Below, one piece after another: positions 14,568-63,825 of a stretch of DNA of 64,000 nt. Source of the stretch: Hemileia vastatrix. Taxonomy: Eukaryota; Basidiomycota; Pucciniomycetes; Pucciniales; Zaghouaniaceae. The notes beneath the pieces are model-generated. The model saw nothing but the letters and a program-made list of their open reading frames with translations. It did not search any database and was not told the DNA's origin. Within the stretch, counting starts at the first letter, position 1; every line of letters begins with the position of its first letter. The position numbers and the translations under genes are program-made. The stretch lies in the NCBI GenBank assembly GCA_030280995.1, contig JASXTE010000009.1:124001-188000 (forward strand), in the 5' to 3' direction.

Positions 14568-14783
14568 AGATTGTCTGTTTCCAACCCCTTCTCTTAATTT
14601 GTTTGAACCCTAGTATTGGTTTTTCTTCACAGGTTTTTAGTCTTCTATGACTTTAAACTGGAAATTCTTTTGGTCTTCAAGTGCCAAACTCTTCACTCTT
14701 ATTGGTTTTGGTTTAATGTGTTGGATTTGTGTTTTGTTAGAGTGTACCCAGGGGGGCTTCTAGATTTTATTTTGGAAAGTGTG

Positions 14784-14825
14784 GAGGTAACTGATGAGCT
14801 GGCTGCTCTGTAGAACAGTTACCCC
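14784..14825 (+). other. Conserved hairpin H2 in A1
   Basis: GAGGTAACTG pairs with CAGTTACCCC (one mismatch) around the inner stem GAGC/GCTC. Homologue at 36448-36489 in A2 has a perfect 10-bp stem. Confidence 0.7.
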
Positions 14826-15416: not shown

Positions 15417-15753
15417 ATTAGTAACTATTATTTGTCTCATGTTATTATTATTATTATTCATTTCATTTTAATTTTTCAACTCTCATATTTTTGGTTAATT
15501 TTGCTATTTATTTTCAAGTTTTTTTTAGTATGTTAGAAGTCTAAAATAAATAAATAAAATAAAATAAAATAAAAGTAAAAAATAAAATAAAAATAAATAA
15601 AATAAAATAAAAATAAAAATAAAACAATTTTTTTGTATATATATCTGTTAATTATTATTGTTCTCTCTATTTAGTGACTTATTAATTTCTTTCTTGTTTA
15701 TTTTAATGTCTGGAAGAAGAAGCCTCCAGCAGTTGTTCCATATTATGGTGGAT

Positions 15754-17259
15754 TTATTGATTTTTGTTAGGATTGGAAGAAGAGCTGTGTTCTTTGTGGT
15801 TTAGGCGGCTGGAAAGAGTATATGGATTGTAATGGTCAGGTACCGGAGTGGAAGATAATTTCTGGGAAGAAGTGGAAGAAGCGGGGATCGAGTGTTTGAA
15901 GGTGTTCTTAATTATTCTAGACATCTTCCAGTGGTCATCAAGGAGCTTTTTCCTCAAATTCTTTTTAAAGTCATTCAAAAGACCTTGGAGGGCAAAGGCC
16001 TTAAGCATGTTTGAACACATCATGCTTAGGTGTTGTTTCATTTCAGCGTAATCCAGTGTTAAGGTAGTTTCTAGAGGTTGGCCAATCCCAATTGTAGTTT
16101 CAGGAGGCTAGGCTACAACTAAACAGAAGAATTAGGATCAGTAATTTTTCACTGTTAAAGAAATTGGCTTTATTAATTTGGTACTTACAGATTGGGAGCT
16201 AATCAAATTTATATGCGGTCAAAATCTGGACTGTTGAAAAAGGTTGAATGGATGTTGAAGGAGGATCAACCAGATGGAGGTATGGATTTTCATGATCATT
16301 TTATAAATGGTTTTGGGAAGATGGACTAGAAGGAGGGAGTTCCTGTGACCTAGTTGGATTAGCAGGGCTGCTGTTGTTGTTGTGGATATTATTATTTCTT
16401 GGCCCAGTTGGGTTGGACACTGGTGGTGGAGAACCAAGGTTGTTGAAGGAAGGATCAGGAGAAGGTGACCTGGAACCTGATTGTCATTTGCTAGATGAAG
16501 ATCTAGAAGAAAGGGAACCATCAGAGGAATAATTGGTTGCCGGAGGAGAGGTGTAGTTAGTTCTTTATAAAGTAACCGGAGATTTTTTTTTGGAAGCAGA
16601 GTTGCGTGCTCTGGTGTTTTCAGAAGGTCCTCTGGCAGGTTTTCTAGAGTTTTTGATATTTTTGGAGATGTCTGGGGAAGAAATTTGGTGTGTACGCCTT
16701 GCTCTGGGAGAGCTAGGAGGTGGTTGCATAGAGTTGTTGGTGTTTAATGGTGTATTTTGACTGTTATCTGGCTGAATTTGGGAGTTTTGAGCCTGATTTT
16801 TGCTTTCTGGGAAGGCGGGTGGGCTGCCTGGATGCGGTCTAGCAGCCTGGGAGCTGATTTTGAAGCTTATTTTTACAAATTTTCTGAGATTAAAGCAGAT
16901 TCTTCAAAAGATAAAGCAGGTCTTTTAGGGAGTGATTTGGGAATAGAACGCCGTGATCTTCTAAAAGGAGCAGAAGATAAAGAAAAAGAAGCAGGCCCAT
17001 GTTCTGGTGACCTGGTAGTAGATCTGGAAATATATTTGTGTGAAGGTGAAGGCGGAGGTACTGGATAGTTGGGGTCTCTGTCACATCTTTTCTTTATAGA
17101 GTTGCAATAATCACAGGCTCTGTTATAGAATTTGGCTTGAGAAGTAGGAAGAGTGAAGGTACAAGGTCTGCACATGTGGATGCACTGTTTACAAGCAAAG
17201 TCCTTTGGAGCAGTGAAACAGGGAAGGTCCAATGGGTCGAAGCCTGGAGATTCAGCCAT
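15754..17259 (-). pseudogene. Antisense gene alpha, A1 copy (zinc-cluster-like protein), broken
   Basis: ATG at 17259. Near the N-terminus it reads CKQCIHMCRPC, then 15 residues, then CDYCNSIKKRC: C-X2-C-X6-C-X15-C-X2-C-X6-C, close to the fungal Zn(II)2Cys6 spacing. A Ser/Pro/Arg-rich region follows, with a stop at 16873; the frame that matches A2 continues at an offset of -1. A GT-AG intron at 16119-16188 (70 nt) with TTACTGATCC near its 3' end leads to a conserved C-terminal exon with LSMMCSNMLKAFALQ and LLDDHWKM. Stops (for example just before the intron, where A2 has Glu) make this copy a pseudogene. It runs opposite to gag-pol. Function unknown; DNA binding is an inference from the Cys motif. 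Confidence 0.72.
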
Positions 17260-17391
17260 GATCTGTGAAAGAAAAACAATGAAGAGAAAAGAGATGATTG
17301 AAAATTTTGTCAGTGATTTGTAGATAATGAAGAAAGAGTGAAAGTTCAGCAGGTTGGCTGTGGAGCACTGTGCATGGAGGTGGCTCCGCCC

Positions 17392-17403
17392 TTTTATGCA
17401 AAA
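17392..17403 (-). promoter_or_regulatory. TATA-like box for antisense alpha (A1)
   Basis: Minus strand TTTTGCATAAAA, 133 nt upstream of the alpha ATG. The identical 12 bases lie 132 nt upstream of alpha in A2. Direct repeats lie immediately beyond it. Confidence 0.55.
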
Positions 17404-17408
17404 TGTGG

Positions 17409-17836
17409 TTAGTCTGTCAAGACTTTAAACTGAACACTGGTAGTCCATCAATACTTTAAACTGAGAAATGGTACAGTCCCCCAAGACTATAAACTGAGGA
17501 TGGTTGTTGGTTGAGTCCTTCAGGACTATAAACTGATAATGTGGATTTAGTGGGATTCTGGCAGAGGGCATCCAAGAGGGAGTCTCTGAATTTTGTTAAG
17601 AAAAGTGTGGGGGTAACTGATGAGCTGGCTGCTCTGTAGAACAGTTACCTTAGAATGTTAGTTTGTTTCTTTGGTCTTTAATGTTTTGATCTCTAGTTCT
17701 GTCTTTTTGATTCAAGTTTTGAGTCCCCCAAGACTATAAACTGAGGGGTTTTGAGTCCCCCAAGACTATAAAATGAGGGCTGTTAGTACCCCAAGACTTA
17801 AAACTGAGGATTAGTCCCCCAAGACTTTAAAATGAG
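17409..17836 (+). repeat. Interrupted tandem repeats, CAAGACTTTAAACTGA type (A1)
   Basis: About eight copies of a roughly 25-bp unit (near 17409, 17440, 17476, 17515, 17722, 17757, 17790 and 17815) with core CCAAGACTWTAAACTGAGG and usually AGTCCC before it, so that AGTC and GACT form a small inverted repeat. They lie between genes beta and alpha, directly upstream of alpha, and enclose one hairpin block. Confidence 0.85.
17610..17651 (+). other. Conserved hairpin H3 in A1
   Basis: GGGGTAACTG pairs with CAGTTACCTT around GAGC/GCTC. It is the counterpart of 33630-33670 in A2, where two paired positions have changed together. Confidence 0.7.
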
Positions 17837-17899
17837 GAGTTTTTTATTCATTTTTATTTCTAAATCAAGATTTTCAGGCAAGAAGTAATTACAGAAAAG

Positions 17900-18480
17900 A
17901 ATGAAGATATGTAACAAAATGTTCAGCATTGGCTTTAAACTGGTGGATGAGGTTCTTTCTTTTCTCAAGGTCCTATGGGTTCCTGGAAGGAGTGGATTGG
18001 AAGTAATCTAAGATGAGATGCTTCTGTTTAGAAGAATTTTGTTGGATGTTTTTTTTGATGGTTGGCAATGGATTAGGTGGGGGTTCTTCAAAGGTTCCCA
18101 CACTGTCATCATCACTGTCTGGATTGGAATGAACTGGAAATTGGTCAGATTGAATTTCAGTATGAAGAAGTATTGAGCTTACCATTAGAAAGACCAGGGA
18201 TGAAAGAGCTAGTGTTTGTAGTGGGGTTGGCACTCTTTTTTGAAGGGTTTAATTTTTTGACCAGTCTGGGGATCAGGATGGATGGTCTGGATCTTTTGGT
18301 GCTGGTGGAAGGTGGATCAGGTTGTGGAGGAGAAGAACATGTTGAAGAGGACAATGGACCAGGTCTGAAACAAGTCTTCATCCTATAGTGACAGGCATCA
18401 CAGGAGGTTCTGTAAAGATGAGCTGGAGGTGTTATGGTACAGATGAGATTGTTGTCAATGCAGTTTCGGCAAGGACCCAT
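17900..18480 (-). pseudogene. Antisense gene beta, A1 copy (zinc-cluster-like protein), one nonsense change
   Basis: ATG at 18480 (an in-frame ATG also exists at 18513). Exon 1 is 298 nt, exactly as in A2. It reads CRNCIDNNLIC, 12 residues, CDACHYRMKTC: C-X2-C-X6-C-X12-C-X2-C-X6-C. A 49-nt GT-AG intron (18134-18182) with CTGACC near its end follows. Exon 2 has the acidic PDSDDDSVG stretch and FQSTPSRNP, then a TAG at 17973 where A2 has CAG; similarity continues to about 17900. Located between the alpha repeats and the 3' LTR, transcribed away from the LTR. Likely role inferred only from the Cys motif. Confidence 0.75.
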
Positions 18481-31635: not shown

Positions 31636-32727
31636 TGTAGACAATCCTATAGTACTAGCTATAGGCCTTGACCAAGGGAGTTGGAGAAAAACCAGAGAGA
31701 AAATCCCCTGTCCCTTTAGAAAAATAGAGTGAGATTTACTTGCTAAAGTAAGTTGGTTCCTGTTTGCTAAAGCCCCTTTTTCAACACACTTGACTGCTTG
31801 ATGAGCCAAGAAAGTAGTCCCCAGACAGACTACCAGACCAGAGAACTGAAATGTAGACCAATGTCCACACCAGAGAAAGCAAAGATACTTGATGTAGGCT
31901 GCAAATTCACACCAGAGACAGCAATAATACTTGCTATAGCTTGCAAGACTATAACAGAGAAAACAGTTGCCAAAGTTGAGTTAAATGAAGAACTCACTTG
32001 CAACAAACACAGCCAATTGTGGCCACAAAAAAGTGAAAACTGAGTGAGGAACAATGGTATCATCTCCAGCTGGTTGTATGATGATTAAGGTTGCCCCAAA
32101 CTGTCTTATTCAATATTTACACACAAACCACTAACTAAGAGCCCATGTGCACCCACCAATCTGGCGCCTGTACCCGCCAAATTGCATAAAAAACCCTCCT
32201 GAAGCACTCCCCAATCTCCTAAAACAGAGGCAGGTGGGCCGCCCGACGTGGGAGATGCCTCCTGAAGCGGCCCGGCCTCCCTGAAGCCAGAAAACCAATA
32301 AAAACAACTAATCTACTTAGAAAAATTAGCTACAACTACTAAAACCTTTAAAACACGGAATTTCACTAAAAAAACATTGACACATGAAATATAGAGAAAT
32401 ATTAGCTCTATCCAATGGTACTAAGCACTTAACCTTAAGACTTAAGGTTAGCCCGTAAAACACAAAAAACAAAATTCAACAGCAATCTTTTATATATAAA
32501 AAATGAGGAAATGAACCCTTAAAACTCAGAATATGAAAAATGTCTTGAAGATATAAAATATAGAAAAAACCAGGGCTATCCAATGATAGTACCCACATGC
32601 CCGCAGACCCAATATCCACGGAATAAAACCAGAAAAATACCCAATTCCTTAACAGATGTCAATTAAGACATGCACAAACAGCGCCAAATCACACAACAAA
32701 GGCCCCTGCCAATGTTGGAAGACCACA
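31636..32727 (-). repeat. 3' LTR of A2 (1092 bp)
   Basis: On the plus strand it reads TGTAGACAATCC to GAAGACCACA, the inverse of the A1 LTR. It includes the 42-bp repeat (31859-31960) and a GC-rich zone (32220-32280). Left flank agcgt; the partner flank is lost. Confidence 0.9.
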
Positions 32728-32740
32728 TCCTCCCTCCAAT
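32728..32740 (-). other. Polypurine tract of A2
   Basis: Minus strand ATTGGAGGGAGGA directly before the 3' LTR, the priming site for plus-strand DNA synthesis. Confidence 0.8.
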
Positions 32741-32808
32741 TGAGAATGTCCACATTCTTTCTTCATCCAACCACCACGTTCAACCTTCTTCCCAATTCCG
32801 CCTCTGAA

Positions 32809-33416
32809 ATGGGTCCTTGCCAATACTGCATCGACAAAAATTTAATCTGCACCATGACACCACCTGTCCATCCATACAGAACGTCCTGCAATGTCTGCCA
32901 ATCTAGAAACAAGACCTGCCACAGACCTGATCCACTATCTTCTGCAACAGATTCACCTCCACCTCAACCTGGTCCATCTTCTGCCAGCACCAAAATATCT
33001 AGGCCATCCATCCTGATACCCAGATTAATCAAAAAGCTTCATACTTCCCAGAAGAGTGCCACAACCCATAAAACAACTAGTTCCACCATCCCTGGTCCAT
33101 CTGATGGTAAAGGACTTTCATTTCTTCCTTCAACTTTAAAACTGATGACTTCTCAGCTCCTCCATCTTCTGATAGTGATGATAACAATGTAGGATCCATT
33201 GCACCACCAACACCAAACCACTTACCCACTATCAAGGCCAAGTTCCAACAACACACATCTCAACAGAAACAACTTCTGCTTCACTACTTCCAATCCACTC
33301 CTGCTAGAGATCCACAGGACATTGAGAACAGAAGACACCTCATTCACCAGTTCAAGGCTAATTCTGAACACTTCATTTCATCTCTTGATTCCTTCTGTAA
33401 TTCCACTAGTACTTGA
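32809..33416 (+). CDS. Antisense gene beta, A2 copy: zinc-cluster-like protein, intact spliced frame
   Basis: Two exons, 32809-33106 (298 nt) and 33157-33416, joined across a 50-nt GT-AG intron with ACTGATGAC near its 3' end, give an uninterrupted 185-residue frame. Residues near the start read CQYCIDKNLIC, 12 residues, CNVCQSRNKTC: C-X2-C-X6-C-X12-C-X2-C-X6-C, which fits the published Zn(II)2Cys6 spacing. A Pro/Ser-rich segment, RPSILIPRLIKKL, an acidic SDSDDNN stretch and a C-terminal helix-like part (FQSTPARDPQDIE, HQFKANSEHF) follow. The frame is also open upstream to an ATG at 32656 inside the LTR, so an LTR-started fusion is possible. The A1 copy has the same exon 1 length, intron site and phase. 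The basic residues lie in the second rather than the first half of the motif, so DNA binding is inference. Confidence 0.75.
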
Positions 33417-33477
33417 GTTTGATTCAGAAAGAAAAATTGACCACACCCTCTGTAGGATGTAACCACAAAACAACCCT

Positions 33478-33933
33478 CAGTTTTAAGTCTTGGGGGACCA
33501 TCCTCATTTTATAGTATTGGGGGACTCAAAAAGCCTCAGTTTAAAGTCTTGGGGGACTCAAAAACCTAAAACATAAACCGAGAACCAGAGATCAACCACA
33601 TTAAGACACAGAGAAAAAACTAACATTCTGGGGTAATTGTAAATAGAGCTTCCAGCCCATCAATTACCCCCAAACTTGCCTTTGCTAAATTCGGAGGCTC
33701 CCCCTGTGGATACCCTCCACCAATCTTTCAAAACCAACTCCAACAACAAAAACTCCTTCGTCAGTTTATAGTCTTGGGGGACTTACAACCCTCAGTTTAA
33801 AGTCTTGGGGGACTTACACAGTTTTCAGTTTAAAGTCTTGACGGACTAGTCTTGATAGAATCTTGAAACCAGCCAGTTTAAAGTCTTGGAGGACTAACAG
33901 AAACCAGATTTCAGTTTAAAGTCTTGATGGACT
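33478..33933 (+). repeat. Interrupted tandem repeats upstream of alpha (A2)
   Basis: Eight copies of CAGTTTAAAGTCTTGG followed by GGGACT or close variants, near 33478, 33508, 33536, 33763, 33792, 33826, 33875 and 33912. Two more single copies occur near 36357 and 36610. They are the inverse of the A1 repeats and end about 9 bp before the alpha TATA-like box. Confidence 0.87.
33630..33670. other. Conserved hairpin H3 in A2 with compensatory change
   Basis: GGGGTAATTG pairs with CAATTACCCC. In all other copies the arms are GTAACTG and CAGTTAC, so a C-G pair has become T-A with pairing kept. The inner helix (AGAGCT/AGCCCAT-type) is also kept. Confidence 0.75.
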
Positions 33934-33941
33934 GGCGGAAT

Positions 33942-33953
33942 TTTGCATAAAAT
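33942..33953 (+). promoter_or_regulatory. TATA-like box for antisense alpha (A2)
   Basis: TTTTGCATAAAA, 132 nt before the alpha ATG, identical to A1 in sequence and spacing. Confidence 0.6.
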
Positions 33954-34084
33954 AGACGCAGCCAATTTCATACAGACCACCCCTACAGCCAACCTGCTGA
34001 ACTTCCACCTTCACTTCATCATCTACCCATCACTGACAAAAATCTCCTCCTATCCCTTTCCGTCATCTTTTCTCACCACAGATC

Positions 34085-35661
34085 ATGGCTGGATCTCCTG
34101 ATGTTAACCCTTCCACTCTCCCTTTCTTCACTGCTCCCAAGGACTATGCCTGCAAACAGTGCATCCACATGTGCAGACCTTGCACATTCACTCTTCCAAC
34201 TCCTGAATCCAAATTCTACAACCGGGCTTGTGATTCTTGCTATTCAAAAAAGAAAAGATGTGACAGAGATGCCAACTACCCTATTCCTCCTCCTCCTCCT
34301 TCACCATCTCACAAATACATCTCTATATCCCCTACCAGATCCCCAGAGCTTGGTCCTTCCTCTTCCTCTTTATCTTCAGCACCTTCCAGAAGATCCAGAA
34401 GCTCCGCTTCCAGAACTCTTCCCAAAAGACCAGCCTTAGCTTCCAAAGAATCTGCTTTTATCTCCGCCAAATTAGCTCCAAAAGTTTCAAGATCAACTCC
34501 CAGGCTTCTAGACTGCATCCAGGCGGCCCGCCCGCCTCACTGGACAGTGAAAATCTGGCTCAAAATCTCCAAAAACAACCGGAAAACAGCCAAATTCCAT
34601 CAATCAACGAAAACAACTCTACACAATCACCTCCCACTTCTCCCAGAGCAATTCAGCCAACTCTTCCAAGGTCCAAAAACTTCAAATTTTCGCAAACTTC
34701 TAGGAGAACTGCCAGAGAACCCCAAGAAGAAACCAGAACACCCCAAACTGCACTCAAGAAACAACTTTGTCCCCAACTAAGACAAAGAAACTACACCTCT
34801 CCTCTGTCAGCCAACTATTCTTCTGAAAGTTCCATCTCTTCAAAAGCTCCATCCAGAAGAGATCAATCTGCTTCCAAATCCCCCTCTCCTGCTCCATCCT
34901 TTAACAACCCTGGTACTCCATCACCAGCACCTCCTCCAGCTGAATCCAACAGAAATAACAACCACAACCACAACCACAATCCCACTGCTCCAACTAAGCC
35001 CCAGGAACATCAGCCTCCTAGTTCACCTTCTCAAAATCTTTCAGAGGAAGACCATGAGATTCCATATCTTTCCCTAGTTAATCCACCCACTATGACCATT
35101 ACAAAATCTTCAGAGATACAAATCCCAGCTGCTTACAAATTTGATGAGGTTCCAATCTGTAAGTACAAAATTAATTTATCCCATTTCTTCAACAAAAATA
35201 ATTACTGATCCAATTCTTCTTGTCTAGTTGGCACCCCTCCTCCTGAATCTATTATTGGAGTTGGCCAACCTCTTGAAACTTCTTTGACCCTGGATTATGG
35301 AGACATGAAGAAACACCTAAGCACCATGTGTTCCAACATGCTAAAAGCCTTTGCCCTCCATGGACCTTTGAATGACTTTGAAAAATCCCTGAGAAAGCTC
35401 CTGTTGGACGACCACTGGAAAATGCCTAGGATCATTAAGCACACCCTCCAGCACTCCATTCCTGCCTCCTCTTCATCCTCCTCTGAACTTCCCTCTAATC
35501 CAATTCCTGACCATTATAATCCCTATAATCTCTCCAGCAGGATGCACTTCAAAGAACACAGTGCTTCCCACAATCCCAACAAAAACAAAAACGTCATCAC
35601 CATCCAGACCAGCCTCCAGAAGCTTCATCATCCAGACAATGAGCTCCTGCAAAAATATTAG
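34085..35661 (+). CDS. Antisense gene alpha, A2 copy: zinc-cluster-like protein, two exons
   Basis: ATG at 34085. The N-terminus reads CKQCIHMCRPC, 15 residues, CDSCYSKKKRC (C-X2-C-X6-C-X15-C-X2-C-X6-C; an extra Cys lies inside the first half). A Ser/Pro-rich tract follows. The ATG frame stays open to 34780, but the frame matching A1 beyond about 34480 is offset by -1 and runs to the intron 35159-35227 (69 nt, GTAAGT...CTAG, branch-like TTACTGATCC). Exon 2 ends at 35661 and has the strongly conserved LSTMCSNMLKAFALH and LLLDDHWKMPRIIKHTLQHS. The same offset exists in A1, so a missed intron or a programmed shift is possible; a shared mutation is the alternative. I do not know its function; nuclear DNA binding is suggested only by the Cys motif. 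Confidence 0.65.
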
Positions 35662-36447
35662 AAACATAATAATAATATAAAACAATTAATAAAAATAATT
35701 TCAATTTTTTTTTTGTATCTACTAATATACTTAAGTTAAAAATTGATAAATAAAATGAAATAAAACAAATGAAATAAAATAAAATATAAAAAAATAATAC
35801 AAATGGTATCCCCCAGCCAATTGATGAGCTGATCCCCTGATACCTTACCCACATCCAACAGCACCTTGATGTGGATACACAATTAAATCTTTTAATTGAT
35901 TAACAGAAAACAAAAATCAAAAAAATTTAGAAATTCAGAAGATAATAAAAATAATGAAACACAGAAACACATGAAATAAATAATAATAAATAAAAAAAAG
36001 AAAATAGCATTGCCCGGCCAATTTATGAGCCTTTCCCCACCAATGCTTGCCCACATCCAAGTGACCCTGATGTGGTAACACCCTATATTTTTCATTTTAT
36101 AATTTTAAACAACCCCCATAAAAAAATTAAAAGAAAAAAAGAGAAAAAAGAAAATAATCTAAAACTTCTATCTAGCAAAAAAATAACTGCAAAATCAAAG
36201 AAAGTCCAGCTCCATAGATGGTCCAATAAGGGAAAGTCCGGTCCATAGAAATGATCACTGGGTGGGCTCCCTCCAATAAGTAAAAATGATGGGAGACCAC
36301 CAATGATCCACCACCAATCTAAAAGAACCAAAGATAAAGAAGCCATTCCCAAACCAGTTTAAAGTCATAGTGGAATTGAGACCTGAATAATAAACAACAG
36401 AACTAGAATTCAACTAGGAAAAACAAAAGACTTGAGACAGACATTCT

Positions 36448-36489
36448 GGGGTAACTGTTCTACAGAGCAGCAAGCTCATCAGTTACCCC
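36448..36489. other. Conserved hairpin H2 in A2
   Basis: Perfect 10-bp stem, GGGGTAACTG with CAGTTACCCC, enclosing an inner GAGC/GCTC stem. Confidence 0.75.
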
Positions 36490-36708
36490 CACACTTGCCA
36501 AAATAAAATCTAGAAGCTCCCCCTGGGTACCTTCTAACAAAAACACAACATCCAACACAAAAAAACCAAAACCAATAAGATTGAAGAGACCAGCACATGA
36601 AAATCAGAGGATATTCCAGTTTAAAGTTATAGAGGACTAAAACCTGTGAAAAGAAACCAATACTAGGGTTCAACCATATTAAGAGAAATGGTTGGAAACA
36701 GACAATCT

Positions 36709-36749
36709 GGGGTAACTGTTGATAGAGCAGCCAGCCCATCAGTAACCCC
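36709..36749. other. Conserved hairpin H1 in A2
   Basis: GGGGTAACTG with CAGTAACCCC (one mismatch) around the inner GATAGAGC/GCCCATC helix. Confidence 0.7.
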
Positions 36750-36889
36750 TACACTTGCCAGGATCAAATCTAGAAGCCCCACCCATGGGTACCTTCTAAC
36801 AAAAAGTTTCCGACACAAAATTTGCTCTGCAACACCACAAAAATTCCAAAACAAAAAAGAACGTTCCATAGTTTATCCTCATTGCGGAG

Positions 36890-38350
36890 TCAATATTCTT
36901 CATGCCTAGTGCCTATGGGATAAAACCTCTTCACTTGGTCTGCAGCCACCCTCTTTTTCAAGACTGCACCATCCAACTCTTCCAAAACATAAGAACCTCC
37001 AGACGCCTGAAATCTGACTCTGTAAGGTCCATTCCATCTGTCAGCAAACATTTTCCCCTACTGACTCTCCAAACTTCTATTATACACCAAAACCAAACAA
37101 CCAGGTTTCAAGGGATTCCTGAGTCTATGAGCCAACTTCTTGTCCCAGTATCTGACTGATTGATTCCTAATCTTCATCATTCTAGAGTATGCCTTCTCCT
37201 GACATTCCTCTCTACATTCCAACTGTTGCATCCTGGCACAGAGCAAATCTTCTGTTGAGTGCATGTCATCCCAATCAATTCCAAGATAAGAGACAGCTTC
37301 CAAGTCCACTGGTAGAACAGCTTTCTGACCAAACATTAACTCATAAGGAGAATAGCCAGTTATCCTCTTCACAGTGACCCTATCAGCAAATAACACCAAG
37401 GGTAAATAATGCCCCCACTTTTCAGCACTATCTCCACACATCTTCACCAAAGCATTCTTGATAACTTGATGGCCTCTTTCAACCATTCCTTCAGCTTCAG
37501 GATAATACGGTGTAGCCACTCTAACTTTAGAGCCAATACTAGCCACAGCTTCTTTAAATTCAGCACCAAATTCTGGCCCGCCATCAACAGTCACCAACTT
37601 CATCAACCCATACCTATAAATCCACTCCTTCTTCAAAAATTCTGCCACATTCTTCACAGTCAAATTAACCAGAGGCACTGCCTCAACCCAAGCAGACAAA
37701 TCATCCCTAGAAACAATCAAGTATTTATACCTGCCCTCTTTAATATGGACAGCATCCAGACTGACCCTTCCAAAAACAGTTGATTCACCAGAAGCACAGC
37801 CGACCTCTTTAGGTTTAAAGTGACTACTTCTTTGAAATTCTTCACAAGATTGAACCCAACCCTGCACAGCCAACTTCATACATGGCCACCAAAATCAGTC
37901 TGCTACTCTTCTATAAGTCTCCCCAAAGCCTCTATGACCAAGGTCTTCATGCAAAGACTTCAAAACCAATTCTTGACCCTTCTTCTGAGTCACCACCACT
38001 TGAGGATTTGGATGTCTCCTCCTCATTAACTTCCTTCCTGATACATAAAATCCAGGACCCTTCTTCTTGATTGCCAACCAAGTATCATCACCACAACTAT
38101 CTGGCCTCTCCAAGGTCAACAGATATTCCACTAAAATAAAATAAAACCCAGACTGACCCCAGGTCTCATCTTCAAAATCCAACAACACCACATCCAAGGG
38201 TACAATTCTGTCATTAAAATCACCAGTATGAACATGAGCCAATTGAATAGCCCAACCAGGACACCAATCCTTAAATTTTGGCACGTCCTTCTCTTTCCAC
38301 TGAACATTGTGAGAATCCAGTTCACTAACAAAAACACCCTTCTCCAATTT
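36890..38350 (-). pseudogene. A2 integrase, two main frames
   Basis: Minus. 38347-37895 encodes the N-terminal part ending LHEDLGHRGFGETYRRVAD (the His pair), then one stop. 37879-37058 starts KLAVQGWVQSCEEFQ, where the second zinc-binding Cys is Phe, and contains the catalytic core: SLDAVHIKEG, TVDGGPEFG and GMVERGHQVIKNAL, so D, D and E are all present. After a frame change near 37058 the SH3-like end runs through FADRWNGPYRVRF and VKRFYP to a TGA at 36890. It would join element cDNA to the genome. Defects: one stop, one frameshift, one lost zinc ligand. Confidence 0.85.
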
Positions 38351-38514
38351 TGAGCTGTCCCAAACAACAACTCCATCTTCATCAACAAAAACATCCTGAT
38401 CACCAGAATAAGGTCAGATCCAGCCAGTTTAGCCTCTTGGGGGAGGTCAGAAAAATCTTCAGCACCCTTTGTGCTGGCCCTAACCACTGGAACATCCTCA
38501 TCAAACTCTTCAGC
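38351..38514 (-). other. A2 RNase H-integrase linker, acidic
   Basis: Asp/Glu-rich linker with stops in every frame, homologous to A1 12740-12950. No domain seen. Confidence 0.5.
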
Positions 38515-41000
38515 CTAAGAATCTTCATCTGTAGGTGGCCTCCTTGATAATCCATCAGGCATAGTAAAAGTTTTACCTGGTTTGTGTACCAGGTCAAAAG
38601 AAAAATGTTGAATAAATGCCACCCACCTAGTAATTGGAGAATTTGGAAAACTAGTTGTATTGATCATCTGAAACAAAGACTTTGCATCTACCTGCGGCTC
38701 AAAATTCTGCCACCACAAAACCGTCTGTAGCTTCTTTAGAAATTTAGCTACGCCACACAATTCCAACTTAGGTTGAGAATACCTAGATTCCACCTCATTA
38801 AACACCACAGACTCATATCTTACTGGCCTGAACCTCCCAGTCTTATCCTCCTGAGACAAAACAGCACCAGAAGCAATATAACTTGAGTCCACTTCCAGAT
38901 AAATTTTTCCAGCACCAAGACCATAATCCAACTTGTGAAGAACAATATCTTCACCAACCCCCTTTTTTAACTTCTGAAAAGCTTCATCACACTCTTCAGT
39001 CCATTCCCAATCTGCATCTTTTCTGGTCAAACTCCTTAAAGGTGAAGCCAACAAAGAAAAATCCTTAATAAAAATCATGACATATACACATACACCCAAA
39101 AATCCCCTGACTTCAGTAGTATTTTAAGGCTTTGGCCATGACTGAATTTTATTAATCTTCTTCTTCGCCATAATCCTTCCCTCTTTACATACCACATAAC
39201 CCAGAATTTCCAAGGCAGGAACACAACAACAGAATTTTGACCCTGAAATGGTCAAACCAGCCTCTTCAATCTTAAACAACACCCTCTCTAGAGTAATTGC
39301 ATATTCCCACACAAACCTCCTTATTCCAGGGTTTTCTGCTAACACCTCATTACCATAATCAGTGGATGGTCCTTTAATTCCACCATCATCAATAAAAATA
39401 CCAGCATGAGTAGGAACCTCATCCTGTAAAATCCAAGCCATCTGTGCCTGATAAACTGCCACTGAATTAGTTGCTCCTTGAGGCAACCTAGTGAGCTGAA
39501 ATCTGCCCAAAGGAGTCTCAAAAGTTGTGAGAGGCCTTGAATCCGTATGTAGTTCCCTCTCATCATAACCACCCATAATATCACCCAAACCATAACAGAC
39601 CCTTCCAGGAAAAGCTTCAACAAAATCCTCTGCACTTGGTGGCATCCCAGTGTCCTTGATAGTGACTCTACTCAAGGCTTTAAGATCATGAACCACCCGC
39701 AACTCTCCATTCTTCTTCTTTACACAGAACACCGGACTTGAGTAACTGGATGTCGATTGTTCATATAACCCAGTCCTGACTATTTCCCTAACAATATCCA
39801 CAAAATCCTCTCTAATAGTGGCTGGAATCTGAATAGGTTTGATTTGCCAAGGTTCATGATAAACCACAGGAATCAAGTAAGGTTCCCCATAAGAGTGCTT
39901 CAATACACCCCTCTCCTCCTCAACAAACGGCACAGCCTTTTCCCTTAGCACAATGACGTGCAACAACAACTTCTTTTCTTCTTCAGACAACCACTCATCA
40001 GGACCAAAATTAACAACCTTCAACCTTTCCACGGTCACCCTAGCCGTCTCTACAAATTCTGGAGGATTCTTCACCAAAGGAGTGCAGTACGGATCTCTTG
40101 ACAGAGGAGGTCTCTTCAAGGGCGGATTCAAGCCCACAGGCATAGGCTCATTGACAGGCCTAATCTTCTGTGCTACCTTCTTATACTTTGCCGCTCCACC
40201 TTCAACTTGAGGGATCTTCAGGAAATCTTCACCACCAGACCTGGAACAAAAACCAAGGGTTTCCCCATTGCTCACATGTGTGGCCAAGGTAATGTTTTTG
40301 AAAGGTGTTGAAGAAACCCTAGCGGTGCACAATTGGGAGGACTTACTTTTACACCCCAAACTCACCACTCCAAAACTTTTCCGCATATTCACATCTTCAT
40401 CCTCACTTCCAACTTCCAAATCTTCAAATCTTGATTCATCTTCAGAATCATATCTTCTAAAATTGTGCAGTTTATCCTCATGCTGGAGGCCCAAAAATCG
40501 ATCTTAATGATCTTCTCTCTTCATAATTTTCTGAAGTTTAAACTCATGCTTGAGGCCCAAAAATTGATCTTGACAATCTTCACAGAAATATTTTGAATCT
40601 TCTTTCCTCATTTTCTTCAGATTTTTTTCTTGATTTTCTTGAATAATCTAGAAATTTTTATCTTCTTTTCTTGAGTTTTCTTCTGACCTACAAAAATAAC
40701 CAGAGGTTTTCCCAATTCTCATAGGTTTGGCCCAGGTAATGTTTTTGAAAGATGTAGAAGTAACCCTAGTGGTGCACAATTGGGAGGACTAACTTTTAGA
40801 CCCCAATCCCACCGCCCCAAAACTTTTCCCCATATCTTAAATAAAGATATATAACCAATCTTCTTCCTTGAACTTGAATTAAAATTAATTAAGAATTTTG
40901 AGAGAGAACAGAGACTTGATAAAAAACTTGATGAATACTTGCAGAGAAGAGAAACATTAAAAAGAGAGAGTTGAAAATCCACTTGGTATATCTCCAAGGG
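38515..41000 (-). pseudogene. A2 linker, reverse transcriptase and RNase H
   Basis: Minus. The RT frame 40494-39124 (456 codons) has ARVTVERLKVVNFG, VVHDLKALSRVTIK, LGDIMGGYDERE, LPQGATNSVAVYQ, FIDDGGIKGP (about 39400-39371) and ALEILGYVVCKEGR. A TAA near 39124 separates it from RNase H (39099-38515): LEVDSSYIASGAVLSQ, ESRYSQPKLELCG, PQVDAKSLFQMI and KPGKTFTMPDGLSRRP. Upstream, 41000-40500 is a linker carrying a duplicate of KSFG..LGSKSKSSQLC. The RT box F-I-D-D-G-G is the norm in this family. Only one stop breaks RT-RNase H. Confidence 0.88.
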
Positions 41001-41110
41001 AGCTGACCTACTACAACCTGGGATTTCCTCATCTTGGGGAGAGGCTGTAGCACTAGGGTGATCAGCCTTTATTACTCTAAAAAAGACAGACTCTCAATAG
41101 AGCCTGAGCC

Positions 41111-41714
41111 TCACTCCAAAAAACCAGAGGCAGAAACCACTTCCTTCCTTCTCCTGCAACAATCCATGCACTGGCACATTGAAGATAAACTAGGTCTGGT
41201 CTCCCAACCATCCTCTCCAGGGGATGAAAACCTCATGTGAAGTCTCCTTTCATCTTCACCAGTCAACTCCAAACTGATTCCCAAATCAAATTGATAACCA
41301 ATTCTTGTCTGAAAATCCAACAAGAATGGCCCACCCAAAACTGGTTTTACATTACCTTTAGCAATGTAAAAATGAACCTTCCCTGAGGCTCTTCCAAAAT
41401 CTAACTTCACAAACTCTGAAGTTCCAACCAATTCAGTGACATGGCCACCAATCCCTCTCAAATTCCCACCAATACCAGTTTTGATGGGGAGGCCCATATG
41501 AGTTGCCTCAAACAGAAATCAGGTTTATCTGAGAACCTGAATCCACCAATGCCCTTGCCTCCCTGCCATTCAGAGTGACATTGACATATCCCAGAGGAGC
41601 AGAAAAATGAGTTTCCAACCCCTCACCAAACTTTTCAGCAGAATCACCAATGTATTCTACCTCAACAGAAGAAACTCTTCTCCTGGTCAACAACTTTTTC
41701 TGTCTATCAGCCAA
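41111..41714 (-). pseudogene. A2 retropepsin-like protease
   Basis: Minus. 41714-41508 contains VNVTLNGREARALVDSGSQINLIS with the active-site D-S-G. A frame change near 41505 leads to 41497-41111, GLPIKTGIGGNLRGIGGHVTE and VKPVLGGPFLLDF, a flap/second half typical of retropepsins. The tail after GEDGWETR is Cys-rich (SMCQCMDCCRRRKE) and specific to family A. Confidence 0.75.
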
Positions 41715-41729
41715 CCCTGGACTGATAGC

Positions 41730-43452
41730 CTACAATTCCCCATAAGATAGGGAAACCTTACCCTGATTCATCCTTTCCAGGACAGAGTCCATAACATTAA
41801 CTTGACCAGAAACTACTGTCCTCTCAAAGTGAGCTCTTTGCTTCACCACCTTGGTCCTAGAAGAATCTTGAGGACCAGCACCACCAACAGGTTTACCATT
41901 ATCAGGAACCAAACCAGATCCCTCACCAGAACCTCTGACTCCAGCAGGCTTTGGCAATTAAGCCAAAGGGACATCCTCCTCAGAGTCAGAATTCACCTCC
42001 ATTGGCATTGGCTCACAACTCATGTCCAATGCGCCAAAACAAGGGGGGCCCATGTCAGCCATACCCTTCTGCATCTTGTACAGCTCCTCTTTGCTGTACC
42101 TCATCCTAGCTGCACTCAGCTTAGGATCCACCTTTGAAGCATTTGGCTTTGGTTGGGCCTGAGAACTGCTCTTAGGCCTTCCCACCTTTCCTGCTTCCAC
42201 ATCATAAACACCAGCCAAGCATTAACCACTTGACTGTCCACCACAAGAATAAAATTGCAAACCACCAAAGGAAGTATAAAAAGAGACCTTATTGACCTCC
42301 TTCCCCTTTCCCTTGCCATCCTCATTCTCCTTAACAGAAGACTTCCCCTGATCAGGAATCTCCTCAAACCTTGGCCTCCTTTGATTAAGACCTCCCATTC
42401 TCCTGACCAAATCAACAGGAGCCTGCCCCTCACTGGGCTTAACAAAAGAACCATCAGGGAACTTGAAAAACCTGCCATCAAATTCCACCTTTCCTTCAGA
42501 CACATCCCTGTTCAATGCCCAACAATCATTGGACCTGTGCCCCCTCCTGCTGAAATAAGAGCAGACCCAAGGATCACTCCTACCAGCCCTCCTATTAAAA
42601 TCTCTAGGCTGAGAAGGTGCCTTATTGACCTTCTTAGCCTCCTGAACAAAAATATGCAGCTGCTTTGTAAGATTAGCCAACTGCTCCACCATTGGGTCCC
42701 TCTCCTGTTTAAGAACCTGCACCAAATTCTTCTCCTCCTTCTTCTCCCTAACTTCCTCTTCAGCCAAAGCCTCACTTACTTTGCTGACATACTTGGCACA
42801 CCCCTCCTGATAGGTGTCCACAGCCAATAACTTCAAATGGGCCTCAACAGCCTCCTTCACCTTATCCAAGGCAGGCAACTTCTGGTCCCCATTAGAAAGA
42901 GTCTTCATCAATTCCTTTCTTGACAACTCCTTCAACACATCCATCCTGACATCTCTAGCCAGGGAAGACCAAAAAAAATCCTTGGCAGAATTTTCATGTG
43001 CCAGCTCCTCCACCTCCACCAAATATTCCACCACATGATCAAACTGTAGCAGAAACTTCCTGTAACTATGAAAGTTACAAACACCACCAAAAGATTGCCA
43101 CTCACTGACAACCTTGTTCAGATCCACCATATTGAACCTGACACCCCATCTATCTATCTTCTTCCTACACAACAATTTCCAATCCCTCTTCTTGTAGCCA
43201 GACATGGCCACAATCTCCTTCTCCACTGACCTATCACCAATGAAGAAGATAATCTGCTTCACCATTTCCAGGTAGGAAGCACCATCCACTCCAGCAGCAG
43301 TTTCATACTTCTCTAGAAACCACTTGACATCCTCCCCATTAAACTTGGAACCATCCCAAGTTTTAATCCTCACACACTCCCTAACCATCACAGAAGGAGG
43401 ACCACCCCCCCCCACTGACAGTCACCACAGGAATAGCAGAACCAGAAGCCAT
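41730..43452 (-). pseudogene. A2 gag
   Basis: ATG at 43452 (context as in A1). A length change in a G-run at about 43406-43414 shifts the frame; from 43415 it is open for 397 codons to 42222. Zinc knuckle CSYFSRRGHRSNDC near 42555-42510 has the second Cys changed to Phe. After a stop at the CGGQSSG position the frame goes on as AGVYDVEAGKVGRPKSSS (42218-41958), with another stop, then 41957-41730. The gag would form particles and bind element RNA. Confidence 0.83.
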
Positions 43453-43544: not shown

Positions 43545-43978
43545 TGTAGACAATCCTATAGTACTAGCTATAGGCCTTGACCAAGGGAGTTGGAGAAAAA
43601 CCAGAGAGAAAATCAGCTTTCCCTTTAGAAAAATAGAGTGAGATTTACTTGCTAAAGTAAGTTGGTTCCTGTTTTGCTAAAGCTCCTTTTCAACATACTT
43701 GACTGCTTGCTGAGCCAAGAAAGTAGTCCCCAGATAGACTACCAGACCAAAGAACTGAAATGTAGAACAAAGTCTGCACCAGAGACAGAAAAGATACTTG
43801 ATGTAGGCTGCAAATCCACACCAGAGACAGCAATAATACTTGATATAGCTTGCAAGACTATAACATAGAAAAGAGTTGCCAAAGTTAAGTTAAATGAAGA
43901 ACTCACTTGCAACAAACACAGACAATTGTGGCCAGAAAACAGTAAAAACTGAGTGAGGAACAATGATATCAACTCTGG
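43545..43978 (-). repeat. 5' LTR of A2, truncated by the B LTR
   Basis: Only the gag-proximal 434 bp remain. At 43978/43979 the sequence switches precisely to the first base of a family-B LTR. Confidence 0.88.
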
Positions 43979-45112
43979 TGTGGTAGCCTAAAGTTTAGTA
44001 TGGCACCTAAAATACGTAACTGGAGTTATTACGGTGTGCCAGATTGACGATATTAATATTTTAAAAAGGATTTATTTAATTTATTTGAGTTTTAAATATG
44101 AAGAAATTTGTTAAAAGCGAATGCCTATGCAAAAAAAAACAATTTTTTTTACGGAGAAAACTTATTTTTATGGCCTGAAAAGCTAATAAGTATCAAGTTG
44201 AGTCACTCAAGAACCTTGGGAAATTTCACAGAATTTTTACTATTTTTCATATATTTTTAAATAAATTTTAAAGATTTATAGAAATATTCACGTTTTTAGA
44301 AATTACTTACCTTTGATGAATTGTCACAGGGTGATTAGAGCTCTGCAGACTACTAAAATTAGTGGGGAATGTAAAGGGGAAGTGGCTCTATCATTTGTAA
44401 TTTTTCTAGATTTTTTATTATAGCTTTAAGGTTCTAATTGAGTCTGGAGGTCCAGACGGACTCCACTTGGAATCTGGATGGACTCTGTACGAGCTCCGTA
44501 CGGGCTCTGGTTGGGCTCTGGCTGAGCTCTGGAGAGGAAACTTAGGCACGTGACTAGGTATACTAAAGAGCCTCTCAGACTCAAAATTGGGAATCATCTT
44601 ACAATCATCATACATCATACATCTTAATCTTTAACTTCCACTGTCTCATTTTTTTTATTACTCAACAAAATTAAATAAATTGTAATACCCTTACAACTTT
44701 ATATTTTATATATAACATTTTAGAAATACTACTCAACAATTTAAATCACACTTCATACAGGGTATCTTTAGAAAGGTCTTCATCACTGGGACTAGATTAT
44801 TGTTGTCTCATAAAAATTCAAATTATTATAAAAAAATAAAAGTCAATCTTTCAGATCTTTCACTGGTACACCTTAATTTTTTTTTATCAGTATTTCTTTT
44901 CTCAACAGCCACAATCATTAAATCTCAATAAGCGTTAAATTTTCAAGAGTTTCAGTATTAATTTATCATCTGATCTAAATAGACTGGGTAGCTTAGCGAT
45001 TCAGAACACTTACTTTGTTATTTTTGTTGGAAGGACGGGGTTTTCAGCTAAATCCACACATCTCCTCCGGATTCTGCTTACAGCAAGGCAACTGTAAGTG
45101 TTTACCTTACCA
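43979..45112 (+). repeat. LTR family B, copy 1 (5' LTR of B1)
   Basis: Begins TGTGGTAGCCTAAAG, ends ACCTTACCA. The other copies are 48317-49452 and 62711-63821. It has a GC-rich block of CGG/CCG-like units (44438-44540, more mutated here) followed by a CACGTG motif at 44547. Confidence 0.88.
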
Positions 45113-45116
45113 TAGT

Positions 45117-45133
45117 TTGCGCCCAACATGGGG
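45117..45133 (+). other. Primer-binding site of B1
   Basis: TTGCGCCCAACATGGGG after a 4-nt spacer (tagt); a variant of the family-A site. Confidence 0.7.
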
Positions 45134-45186
45134 TTTGAAATCTCTAGCTTTTTCTACGACTTTTTTGGGTCCAGGTCTTAGTTAAT

Positions 45187-45249
45187 AGCCTGAAAGAGGC
45201 TTATTCTTTGGAACTCTAATTGATCTTTGTCATTAGCCTGAGAGAGGCT
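45187..45249 (+). other. Tandem stem-loops in the B leader
   Basis: Two small hairpins 48 bp apart, AGCCT-gaaag-AGGCT (45187-45201) and AGCCT-gagag-AGGCT (45235-45249). The other B leader (63894-63957) has the same pair with loop GCAAG. Position between primer-binding site and gag suits an RNA packaging or dimerisation signal; that role is inference. Confidence 0.5.
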
Positions 45250-45292
45250 TGTTTATTTTAACGGTTTTTAAAGCTTTTCTTTACTTATTGAG

Positions 45293-47779: not shown

Positions 47780-48316
47780 TGTGGTCTTCCAACATTGGCA
47801 GGGGCCTTTGTTGTGTGATTTGGCGCGGTTTGTGCATGTCTTAATTGACATCTGTTAAGGAATAGGGTATTTTATCTGGTTTTATTCCGTGGATATTGGG
47901 TCTGCAAGTATGTGGGTAATATCATTGGATTGCCCTGGTTTTTCTCTATATTTTATGTCTTGGAGACATTTTTAATATTCTGAGTTTTAAAGGGTCATTT
48001 CCTCATTTTTAATTTATAAAAGATTGCTGTTCAATTTTGTTTTTTGTATTTTATGGGCTAACCTTAAGTCTTAGGGTTAAGTGCTTAGTACCATTGGATA
48101 GAGCTAATTTTTCTCTATATTTCATGTCCCAATGTTGTTATAGTGAAATTCCGTGTTTTAAAGGTTTTAGTAGTTGTAGCTAATTTTTCTAAGTAGATTA
48201 GTGGTTTTTGTTGGTTTTCTGGCTTCAGGGAGGCCGGGCCGCTTCAGGTGGCCTGCCTGCTTCTGTTTTAGGAGGTTGGAGAGCACTTTAGGAGGGTTTT
48301 TTATGCAATTTGGCGG
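47780..48316 (+). repeat. Family-A LTR fragment inside the B mosaic
   Basis: Starts at the exact LTR end TGTGGTCTTCCAACATTGG and covers the first 537 bp to GCAATTTGGCGG, then gives way to the B LTR start. Most similar by eye to the LTRs of A2 and 59516-60599. Confidence 0.88.
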
Positions 48317-49452: not shown

Positions 49453-49937
49453 TAACAGATGTAAGTGAGGAGGGTCCAGGTGTAACGGGTGTATTTTTGG
49501 AGGTCTGTGGCATGCAAAATGATGGATGGGTATGAGGTCAATGTGAGGAGGAATAATGGATATAAAAGGGGTTGGATTTTGGTTTGACATTTCTCTAGAA
49601 TTAAATTATATAATGTATCTATATTTAATAGTGATAAAGCTTCAAGTTAAATCATTATTATTGTACATTTCCTTATTTTCTTGGTAATCATTTCTAAAAC
49701 TTAAATCTTTGATTATCAAGTCTACAACCCTTTGTGAGATCCTAAGAATATTAATATTATCATTAAATTATATTAAGATTCTTATCAAAAATATCTCGAA
49801 GCATCAGTTCCTCCTTTGAATCATCTTTGAATCACTTCCTCAAAAAATTCCTCTGTTCTTCAAAGAAATTTCTAACTCCACCCTTCATCTCACTTTCAGG
49901 AACACCCTCGACCTTGTGTGTAGGTCCTCCGGTGACA
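49453..49937 (+). other. Unassigned block, possible solo LTR of a fourth family
   Basis: 49460-49937 begins TGTAAGTGAGGAGGG and ends CCGGTGACA, has a TATAAAAGGGG box at 49560-49570 and no coding. It sits between the end of a B LTR and a truncated C LTR. The TG..CA ends and TATA position suggest a 478-bp LTR, but no second copy or target duplication is visible (acaga/aatag). Confidence 0.35.
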
Positions 49938-51253: not shown

Positions 51254-51256
51254 ATC

Positions 51257-60599: not shown

Positions 60600-61297
60600 C
60601 CGTTTCAGGGTCAAAATTCTGTTGTTGTGTTCCTGCTTTGGAAATTCTGGGTCAAGTGGTATGTAAAGAGGGAAGGATTATGGCAAAGAAAAAGATTAAA
60701 AAAATTTAGTCATGGCCAAGGCCTAAAATTACTACTGAAGTCAGGGGATTTTTGGGTATGTGTGTATATGTCAGGATTTTTATTTAGGATATTTCCTTGT
60801 TGGCTTCACCTTTAAGGAGGTTGACCAGGAAAGATGCAGATTTGGAATGGACTGAAGAGTGTGAAGAGGCTTTTCAGAAGTTGAAAAAGGTTGTTGGGGA
60901 AGATATTGTTCTTCACAAGTTGGATTATGGTGTTGGTGCTGGAAAAATTTATCTGGCAGTGGACTCAAGCTATATTGCTGCTGCTGCTGTTTTGTATCAG
61001 GAAGATAAAACTGGGAGGGTCAGGCCAGTAAGATATGAGTCTGTGGTGTTTAATGAGGTGAAATCTAGGTATTCTCAATATAAGTTGAAATTGTTTGGTG
61101 TAGCAAAAATTTTAAAGAAGCTACAGACTGTTTTGTTGGGGCAGAATTTTGAGCTGCAGGTGGATGAAAAATCTTTGGTTCAGATGATCAATACACCTAG
61201 TCTTCCAAATGCTCCAATGACTAGGTGGGTGGCATTTATTCAACATTTTTCTTTTGACCTGGTACACAAACCAGGCAAAACTTTTACAATGCCTCTC
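60600..61297 (+). pseudogene. A4 RT end and RNase H, broken
   Basis: Begins with the tail of RT (CCCVPALEILGQVVCKEGR, shifted), then 60797-61297: LTRKDADLEWTEECEEAFQKLKK, LAVDSSYIAAAAVLYQ, ESVVFNEVKSRYSQYKLKL and LQVDEKSLVQMI. Ends at KTFTMP; the next codon (A2: Asp of DGLSRR) is missing because of the join to the 3' repeats. Confidence 0.82.
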
Positions 61298-62060
61298 CAA
61301 GACTTTAAACTGGCTACTGTTCAAAACGTTCTTTAAGGTTTTTTTTATACAAATTTCGGAGCTGTTAGTCCTCCAAGACTTTAAACTGGCTAAATTTCAA
61401 GACTTTCATTAAAGATTTTATATTGGAGCTGTTAGTCCTTCAAGACTTTAAACTGAATTTCAAGGATGTTCAAGATTTTATGGATATTTTGGGAGACGGA
61501 TTTATTTTTATTTTTTAATTTTATCAATCAAATGTTAGGTCCACCAAGACCTTAAACTGGAGTGTTATCAAATTTTAGGTCCACCAAGACCTTAAACTGG
61601 ACTGTTATCAAGCTGTTGGGTCCACCATGACCTTAAACTGGATTTCTTATCAATCAAATGTTTGGTCCACCATGACTTTAAACTGGTAGTTCATTCATTG
61701 TTTAGTCCACTATGACTTTAAACTGGAAAATTAATATCTGCAGGATAATTCAACATTCATTGGTCCACTATGGCATTATACTGGATTACTTGTCGATCAA
61801 ATGTTTGGTCCACTATGACATTAAACTGGATTATCAAATTTATTCAATCTTTGGTCAAGCCTAGGCCTTACTTAGGAATTTATCAAGTTATTTATGCACC
61901 TAAACGATCTTTGTTCCACCAAGACCATAAACTGGCAATCGATTATATGTTTGGTCTACCAAGACTATAAATTGGAATGTCAATCTTGTTTGGATAACTC
62001 AATTCAATCTTTTAATTTAACACTGTCCACTAAGACTCTAAACTGGTTATTCAATTATTT
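61298..62060 (+). repeat. Tandem repeats, CCAAGACYTTAAACTGG type (B-like 3' tail)
   Basis: About thirteen units spaced about 40-90 bp, near 61298, 61368, 61433, 61540, 61578, 61618, 61662, 61701, 61759, 61806, 61912, 61953 and 62022, each with GGTCCACCAAGAC or GGTCCACTATGAC then TTAAACTGG. Same motif family as the A1 and A2 arrays. Confidence 0.88.
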
Positions 62061-63821: not shown

Positions 63822-63825
63822 TAGT

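What the first reader, a model, noticed from the sequence alone, without database searches (positions are those of the whole stretch)
32809..35661. Retrotransposon with a two-gene antisense zinc-cluster module (A2)
Between integrase and 3' LTR, on the strand opposite to gag-pol, lie two genes whose N-termini each have two C-X2-C-X6-C halves, 12 or 15 residues apart, close to the fungal Zn(II)2Cys6 binuclear cluster. Both are spliced, both recur at the same place in A1 with all cysteines kept, and a TATA-like box and a repeat array sit between them. Antisense extra ORFs are known from some plant LTR elements, but I know of no Ty3/gypsy family with two spliced zinc-cluster-type genes plus candidate target repeats. 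This may be an element-encoded regulatory circuit.
Basis: partly seen in the sequence, partly recalled or inferred. Interest (0 to 1): 0.9.

Follow-up and report, generated by a model that had tools for sequence, protein, structure and literature searches.

The report
Antisense zinc-cluster genes in a retrotransposon
A very abundant fungal jumping gene carries, on its opposite strand, two related genes for small cysteine-rich, probably DNA-binding proteins that selection kept working while the element was active, beside an array of short repeats that may be their target.

Summary
Opposite to gag-pol, between integrase and 3' LTR, lie two spliced genes, alpha (32809-33416) and beta (34085 to about 35661). 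Their six-cysteine N-terminal domains are related to each other. A 22-bp repeat array between them ends 12 bp before a TATA-like box upstream of beta. In the window's 748-Mb genome a beta marker has 4,420 hits and an integrase marker 4,440; four of four sampled integrase sites lacking an exact beta marker still had alpha, two also beta. Over 50 copies, changes fixed between two subfamilies favour third codon positions in alpha and in beta's two ends; private changes do not. So both proteins were under purifying selection. Corrections: the domain is no standard Zn2Cys6 cluster (halves match Pfam Zn_clus in swapped order, below cut-off); beta has a frame change in both window copies; some relatives keep the array without the genes. 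Antisense accessory ORFs are a known kind (Grande, Retand, Boty); two related zinc-cluster-type genes are a new variant. DNA binding and expression are untested.

The parts
31636..32727 (-). 3' LTR of element A2 (gag-pol on the minus strand)
   Evidence: Pairs with 43545-43975 (32 differences in 431 nt) and with the A1 LTRs; outside it the other 19 A2-like copies have unrelated flanks
32809..33106 (+). alpha exon 1, with the six-cysteine domain (32818-32919)
   Evidence: Open frame; fixed differences by codon position 12/7/25, p=0.003; A1-A2 dN/dS 0.27
33107..33156 (+). alpha intron
   Evidence: GT 48 and AG 46 of 49 copies; the frame of the third-position signal changes across it
33157..33416 (+). 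alpha exon 2
   Evidence: Fixed differences 15/9/26, p=0.01; dN/dS 0.23
33478..33933 (+). array of eight 22-bp repeats between alpha and beta
   Evidence: 7-12 repeats per locus in 50 loci, those outside this stretch included
33946..33952 (+). TATA-like box (CATAAAA) upstream of beta
   Evidence: 139 nt before the ATG; last repeat ends 12 bp before it in 20 of the 21 loci (of 50) where the script found both
34085..34438 (+). beta exon 1, with the six-cysteine domain (34151-34261)
   Evidence: Fixed differences 9/3/37, p=2e-9; odds ratio against private changes 6.67, p=3e-8; dN/dS 0.12
34439..35158 (+). beta middle part, with a frame change near its start in A2 and A1; weakly constrained at best
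   Evidence: dN/dS 0.52; 40 synonymous and 92 nonsynonymous fixed differences
35159..35227 (+). beta intron
   Evidence: GT 45 and AG 47 of 49 copies; only 4 fixed differences in 64 sites between subfamilies
35228..35661 (+). beta last exon (coding signal fades after about 35508)
   Evidence: Fixed differences 12/7/30 over 35230-35507, p=1e-4
36354..36805 (+). two units of about 190 bp, each with one 22-bp repeat and an inverted repeat; part of a third unit is at 33537-33680
   Evidence: Self-comparison, inverted arms, repeats
37061..43421 (-). gag-pol of A2: integrase core, reverse transcriptase, and an ORF called gag by its position
   Evidence: Pfam rve E 6e-8, RVT_1 E 3e-10; the gag-position ORF matched no family
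15700..18480 (-). the same module in element A1: alpha exon 1 18480-18184, array 17834-17411, beta from 17259
61291..62045 (-). repeat array in element A3, in which no alpha- or beta-like sequence was found

Best explanation
A high-copy Ty3-type LTR retrotransposon carries a two-gene antisense accessory module. Shown: alpha and beta are spliced protein-coding genes with related six-cysteine domains, kept by purifying selection while the family was active, and found together with an array of 22-bp repeats whose last copy sits 12 bp upstream of a TATA-like box before beta. Inferred: the six cysteines bind two zinc ions in a cluster related to fungal Zn2Cys6 but with the two halves in swapped order. 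Also inferred: the proteins enter the nucleus and bind, as dimers or alpha-beta pairs, the inverted triplets GTC-N6-GAC within each repeat, so controlling beta's own promoter and antisense transcription through the 3' end of the element, and thereby output and copy number. Alpha is probably transcribed from the 3' LTR side, since only 81 bp separate it from the LTR.
For: Position and splicing. Selection: A1-A2 dN/dS alpha 0.26, beta first exon 0.12, last exon 0.20, shifted frames 0.96 to 2.9; fixed versus private changes. Relatedness of the two domains. Zn_clus-like halves in both copies; the only PDB match at E<=10 is an ethanol regulon transcription factor (AlcR, a Zn2Cys6 protein; that name recalled), at E 7.8. 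Repeat: GTC and GAC are nearly fixed and position 17 nearly free in 490 repeats; in 50 loci GTC-N6-GAC occurs 335 times in the array stretch and 0 times in alpha and beta. Spacing of the last repeat to the TATA-like box. Linkage: of the 67 exact beta marks listed on contig C2, 35 have an exact integrase mark 2.5-6 kb away, shifted control mean 0.5, largest 3.
Against: No transcript, binding or localisation data. Pfam scores are below cut-off (8.1 and 13.6 against 21 bits), and four of eight half-domains match nothing. Most other positions of the repeat are as conserved as GTC and GAC, and the repeats were picked by likeness, so the inverted triplets are not singled out and may be chance. GTC-N6-GAC is also found 73 times in the post-beta stretch. 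The array also occurs in elements without the genes, so it need not depend on them. No such site is shared by both subfamilies in U3: 18 hits in the 20 A2-like copies, 0 in the 30 A1-like copies. The structure model was poor (pLDDT 49.6).
Confidence: 0.45

Rival explanations
1. Alpha and beta are zinc-binding nucleic-acid chaperones or RNA export factors (like retroviral accessory proteins) acting on the element's RNA or particles, and the array is unrelated to them.
For: Cysteine-rich domains followed by proline- and serine-rich tails; repeat units with inverted arms near the 3' end could be RNA elements; the array persists without the genes.
Against: The halves resemble a DNA-binding cluster; the array is tightly placed at beta's presumed promoter.
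Confidence: 0.2
2. The module is host-directed: the element captured a host regulator gene, duplicated it, and uses the products to alter host gene expression or silencing.
For: Spliced genes with small introns, independent of gag-pol; selection on the proteins.
Against: No cellular relative was found, though I did not test whether those collections hold fungi. The array, if it is the target, lies in the element itself.
Confidence: 0.15
3. What matters is antisense transcription itself (double-stranded or small RNA control of gag-pol), and the proteins are incidental.
For: Antisense transcription as a control is discussed for other elements (passages of PMC7264820).
Against: Codon-position selection in alpha and beta is not explained by an RNA function alone.
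Confidence: 0.08
4. Chance open frames in decaying repeats.
For: Many copies are damaged: alpha is open from start to stop in 11 of 20 A2-like copies, and 7 of 20 are open with all six cysteines, although these 20 are the best matches to the window copy.
Confidence: 0.01

Closest known systems
Retand lineage of plant Ty3/gypsy elements (TRP28 antisense ORFs; PMC11963269, passages read)
   Same: Long pol-3'LTR region with antisense ORFs encoding proteins predicted to bind DNA, and family-specific tandem repeats
   Different: Plant; TRP28 (PF04195) domain, which is not listed in the Pfam scan of alpha and beta at E up to 10; here a six-cysteine domain, two related spliced genes, fungal host (inferred)
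Boty / BcGypsy1 with antisense gene brtn (cited in PMC7264820, PMC8365987 and PMC5987419, passages read; the original paper was not read)
   Same: Fungal Ty3/gypsy element with an additional antisense gene between pol and 3' LTR
   Different: One antisense gene named there; no zinc-cluster domain mentioned in the passages seen; its sequence was not compared
Grande gene23 and RIRE2 antisense ORFs (PMC7264820, passages read)
   Same: Antisense accessory gene; for Grande, a nuclear protein with its own promoter is reported
   Different: Plant; no similarity to known proteins reported in the passages seen
Fungal Zn(II)2Cys6 transcription factors (Pfam PF00172)
   Same: Cysteine spacing within each half; some half-domains resemble the Zn_clus halves
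   Different: Halves in swapped order, below Pfam cut-off, carried antisense in a retrotransposon

Membership tests
Zn(II)2Cys6 binuclear cluster (PF00172) | Pfam gathering score (21 bits) reached | tested here: not met
   alpha 8.1, beta 13.6 bits; best half alone 19.9 bits
Zn(II)2Cys6 binuclear cluster (PF00172) | Six cysteines spaced C-X2-C-X6-C-X5..12-C-X2-C-X6..8-C (range recalled, from no call) | tested here: inconclusive
   alpha has linker 12 (within), beta 15 (outside) and a seventh cysteine
Zn(II)2Cys6 binuclear cluster (PF00172) | First half resembles profile start, second half resembles profile end | tested here: not met
   alpha first halves match profile 18-35 (2 of 2 copies), beta second halves match profile 1-16 (2 of 2); the other four half-domains gave no match
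Zn(II)2Cys6 binuclear cluster (PF00172) | Binds two zinc ions and DNA | not testable with these tools
   No assay; structure model of low confidence
Antisense additional ORFs of LTR retrotransposons (aORF-3R) | Gene antisense to gag-pol, between pol and 3' LTR | tested here: met
Antisense additional ORFs of LTR retrotransposons (aORF-3R) | Present in most copies and conserved as protein | tested here: met
   4,420 beta and 4,440 integrase marks; alpha in 4 of 4 sampled integrase sites, beta in 2 of 4; selection. Sampling is small, and array-only relatives exist
Antisense additional ORFs of LTR retrotransposons (aORF-3R) | Transcribed from its own promoter | not testable with these tools
   Only a TATA-like box seen
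Retand TRP28 antisense proteins | PF04195 domain | tested here: not met
   Only Zn_clus listed up to E 10
Boty BRTN | Sequence similarity to BRTN | not tested
   No BRTN sequence was at hand
Ty3/gypsy LTR retrotransposon | Two LTRs, gag-pol with reverse transcriptase before integrase | tested here: met
   integrase (37061-37894, minus strand) lies after reverse transcriptase (39127-40503); A2's 5' LTR is cut short, A1 has both

The most novel reading that the evidence does not exclude
The element carries a self-contained trans/cis circuit. Two duplicated regulators with a swapped-half zinc cluster act on a 22-bp operator array spread to about 25,000 genomic sites. Array-only relatives that lack both genes but keep or enlarge the array are parasites of the regulator-bearing elements, so thousands of copies form one regulated network inside a fungal genome.
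Probability: 0.25. Interest if true: 0.85.

Novelty: new variant of a known kind. Interest (0 to 1): 0.62.

Why it matters
What antisense accessory genes of LTR retrotransposons do is an open question (so stated in the passages read of PMC7264820 and PMC11963269). Here a family with thousands of copies gives clear evidence that two such proteins were kept by selection, a recognisable candidate DNA-binding domain, and a candidate target array with natural gene-less variants for comparison. That makes the regulation hypothesis directly testable. If the swapped-half cluster is real it would also be an unusual form of a characteristic fungal DNA-binding domain.

Tried and rejected
Protein searches with alpha (51 candidates), beta (7,985 scored) and a four-sequence domain alignment (7,627 candidates) found no relative at E<=1, 1 and 10, and a scan of viral contigs none. 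I did not test whether these collections hold fungi, so this says little about absence elsewhere. A GT-AG intron for beta's frame change was sought and not found; a programmed frameshift was considered and dropped for lack of a shared signal. A repeat-like site in U3 shared by both subfamilies was sought and not found. The structure model was too poor to use; the second structure job was not spent. Within the 20 A2-like copies alone no exon shows a significant codon-position bias, as expected of copies decaying after insertion; the signal is between subfamilies. Against private changes, alpha exon 2 is borderline (p=0.05) and beta's middle is not significant (p=0.08). A Pfam PF00172 search of the host genome and an alpha pattern count did not complete.

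Full report
What is there. Element A2 is a Ty3-type LTR retrotransposon on the minus strand: one LTR at 31636-32727, part of the other at 43545-43978, a gag-position ORF and pol ORFs between, with Pfam matches to reverse transcriptase and integrase core. A1, on the plus strand, has LTRs at 7106-8191 and 18562-19661. In A2 the stretch from integrase to LTR holds two plus-strand genes. Alpha runs from 32809 to 33416 with a 50-nt intron; beta from 34085 to about 35661 with a 69-nt intron. A1 has both at the same place on its opposite strand.

The domains. Alpha and beta each begin with two C-X2-C-X6-C halves, 12 and 15 residues apart; in a six-frame scan of 64 kb this pattern occurs four times, in these genes of A1 and A2. 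Beta's first half holds one cysteine more. The two domains match each other by tblastn (30-37% identity over 57-92 residues; E 1e-5 and 1e-4 with alpha as query, 1e-6 and 5e-6 with beta), so the two genes look like a duplication. Against Pfam, whole alpha and beta score 8.1 and 13.6 bits with Zn_clus, cut-off 21. Half by half, alpha's first halves match the end of the profile (positions 18-35; E 0.016 and 0.00078), beta's second halves match its start (positions 1-16; E 0.0016 and 0.0034), and the other four halves match nothing. So the resemblance to fungal zinc clusters is weak but repeated, and the order of the halves is swapped. That half of the pieces gave no match limits this claim.

Selection. 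Between A1 and A2 the excess of changes sits at the third codon position of the predicted plus-strand frames, and moves with the frame across alpha's intron. dN/dS is 0.26 for alpha, 0.12 for beta's first exon, 0.20 for its last exon and 0.52 for its middle; shifted frames give 0.96 to 2.9. Fifty copies from the window's genome allow a cleaner test: 20 A2-like (of 40 scored among 6,430 candidates) and 30 A1-like (of 40 scored among 6,938), in both cases the best matches, so not a random sample. Differences fixed between the subfamilies, by codon position: alpha exon 1 12/7/25, alpha exon 2 15/9/26, beta exon 1 9/3/37, beta middle 42/37/53, beta exon 3 12/7/30. Private changes are even: 71/87/73, 52/52/59, 72/73/67, 114/117/107, 59/73/69. 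Fixed against private, the odds ratios for position 3 are 2.85 (p=0.002), 1.91 (p=0.05), 6.67 (p=3e-8), 1.45 (p=0.08) and 3.02 (p=0.001). LTR, introns, intergenic and post-beta DNA show no bias in either class. So the proteins were constrained while the family moved, and copies decay neutrally after insertion. Beta's middle shows no clear constraint.

State of the copies. Of 20 A2-like copies, 11 have alpha open from start to stop and 7 of these keep all six cysteines. In the domain alone, six cysteines are kept in 11 of 20 and 15 of 27 copies (alpha, A2-like and A1-like) and 9 of 19 and 18 of 28 (beta); copies without a full-length domain were left out. Beta in both window copies has a frame change in a G+C-rich tract, where copies differ in length; no splice site was found there.

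How general. A 29-base beta marker (up to 3 mismatches) has 4,420 genome hits, an integrase marker 4,440, a reverse transcriptase marker 3,811, with 0 for each reversed control; equal numbers do not by themselves show that the marks sit in the same elements. Of the 67 exact beta marks listed for contig C2, 35 have one of the 97 listed exact integrase marks 2.5-6 kb away on the same strand, 32 of them at 3,507-3,762 bp; shifted control mean 0.5, largest 3. Of the 62 listed integrase marks without an exact beta mark, four were read over 1.5 kb each: all four have alpha sequence and two also beta.

The array. The 22-bp repeat has 8 copies between the genes in A2 and one in each of two units near integrase. 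Each of 50 loci has 7-12 copies, 490 in all; GTC (positions 10-12) and GAC (19-21) are nearly fixed and position 17 is nearly free, but most other positions are well conserved too. Up to one mismatch, 24,748 sites lie in the genome, control 0. A TATA-like box follows the last repeat by 12 bp in 20 of the 21 loci (of 50) where the script found both marks. The window's element A3 has the array, and no alpha- or beta-like sequence was found there. Whether these two have integrase was not read. The array is thus separable from the genes. That fits a target in trans, but equally an independent role.

Mosaic history. A1 and A2 differ by about 9-17% through gag-pol and about 12.5% in the outer LTR part, but by 18-37% from about 32136 to 36135, which spans the module and the adjoining part of the LTR. 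Third-position differences are also higher there than in pol. The module and its LTR side therefore seem to have been exchanged between subfamilies as a block.

Known or new. [quoted passage not shown] PMC7264820 (passages) names Grande, RIRE2, Retand, PvRetro13 and fungal Boty; PMC11963269 (passages) describes Retand antisense proteins predicted to bind DNA together with tandem repeats; PMC8365987 and PMC5987419 (passages) mention brtn. Eight searches of the open library, of which I saw the listings and abstract starts, listed no paper whose title or abstract start describes zinc-cluster-type antisense genes in a fungal LTR element; most subscription papers are not in it. I rate it a new variant of a known kind.

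Limits. No expression data, no binding data, one genome, an unnamed host.

Noticed in passing
window 32136-36135: A1-A2 divergence jumps from about 12-15% to 18-37% over the module and the adjoining part of the LTR, a likely block exchange between subfamilies; locus L023 has an A1-like module with a more A2-like sequence at 32640-32690.
   Followed up: partly
window 33537-33680, 36354-36543, 36616-36805; A1 14480-14919 and 17572-17743: Units of about 190 bp, each with a 22-bp repeat and an inverted repeat of about 10-bp arms; one A2 unit differs from another by a paired change in both arms.
   Followed up: partly
window 35159-35227: The beta intron is unusually conserved between subfamilies: 4 fixed differences in 64 sites, against 110 in 573 for intergenic DNA.
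   Followed up: no
window 58382-64000: A3: pol about 92% like A2, interrupted by an A-type LTR at 59516-60599, then a repeat array and a stretch from 62711 that looks like a different LTR type.
   Followed up: partly
window 43979-49454: The stretch that looks like a second LTR type starts at 43979 and at 48317, both times right after an A-type LTR piece, around a 751-aa ORF with a weak protease match.
   Followed up: no
window 1-2000: Spaced repeats (about 235 to 475 bp apart) with an inner inverted repeat of the form CACAAGTTTGGCCAAACTTGTG.
   Followed up: no
window 50507-56382: Another Ty3-type element with long ORFs (1276 and 439 aa) matching reverse transcriptase, RNase H and integrase.
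   Followed up: no
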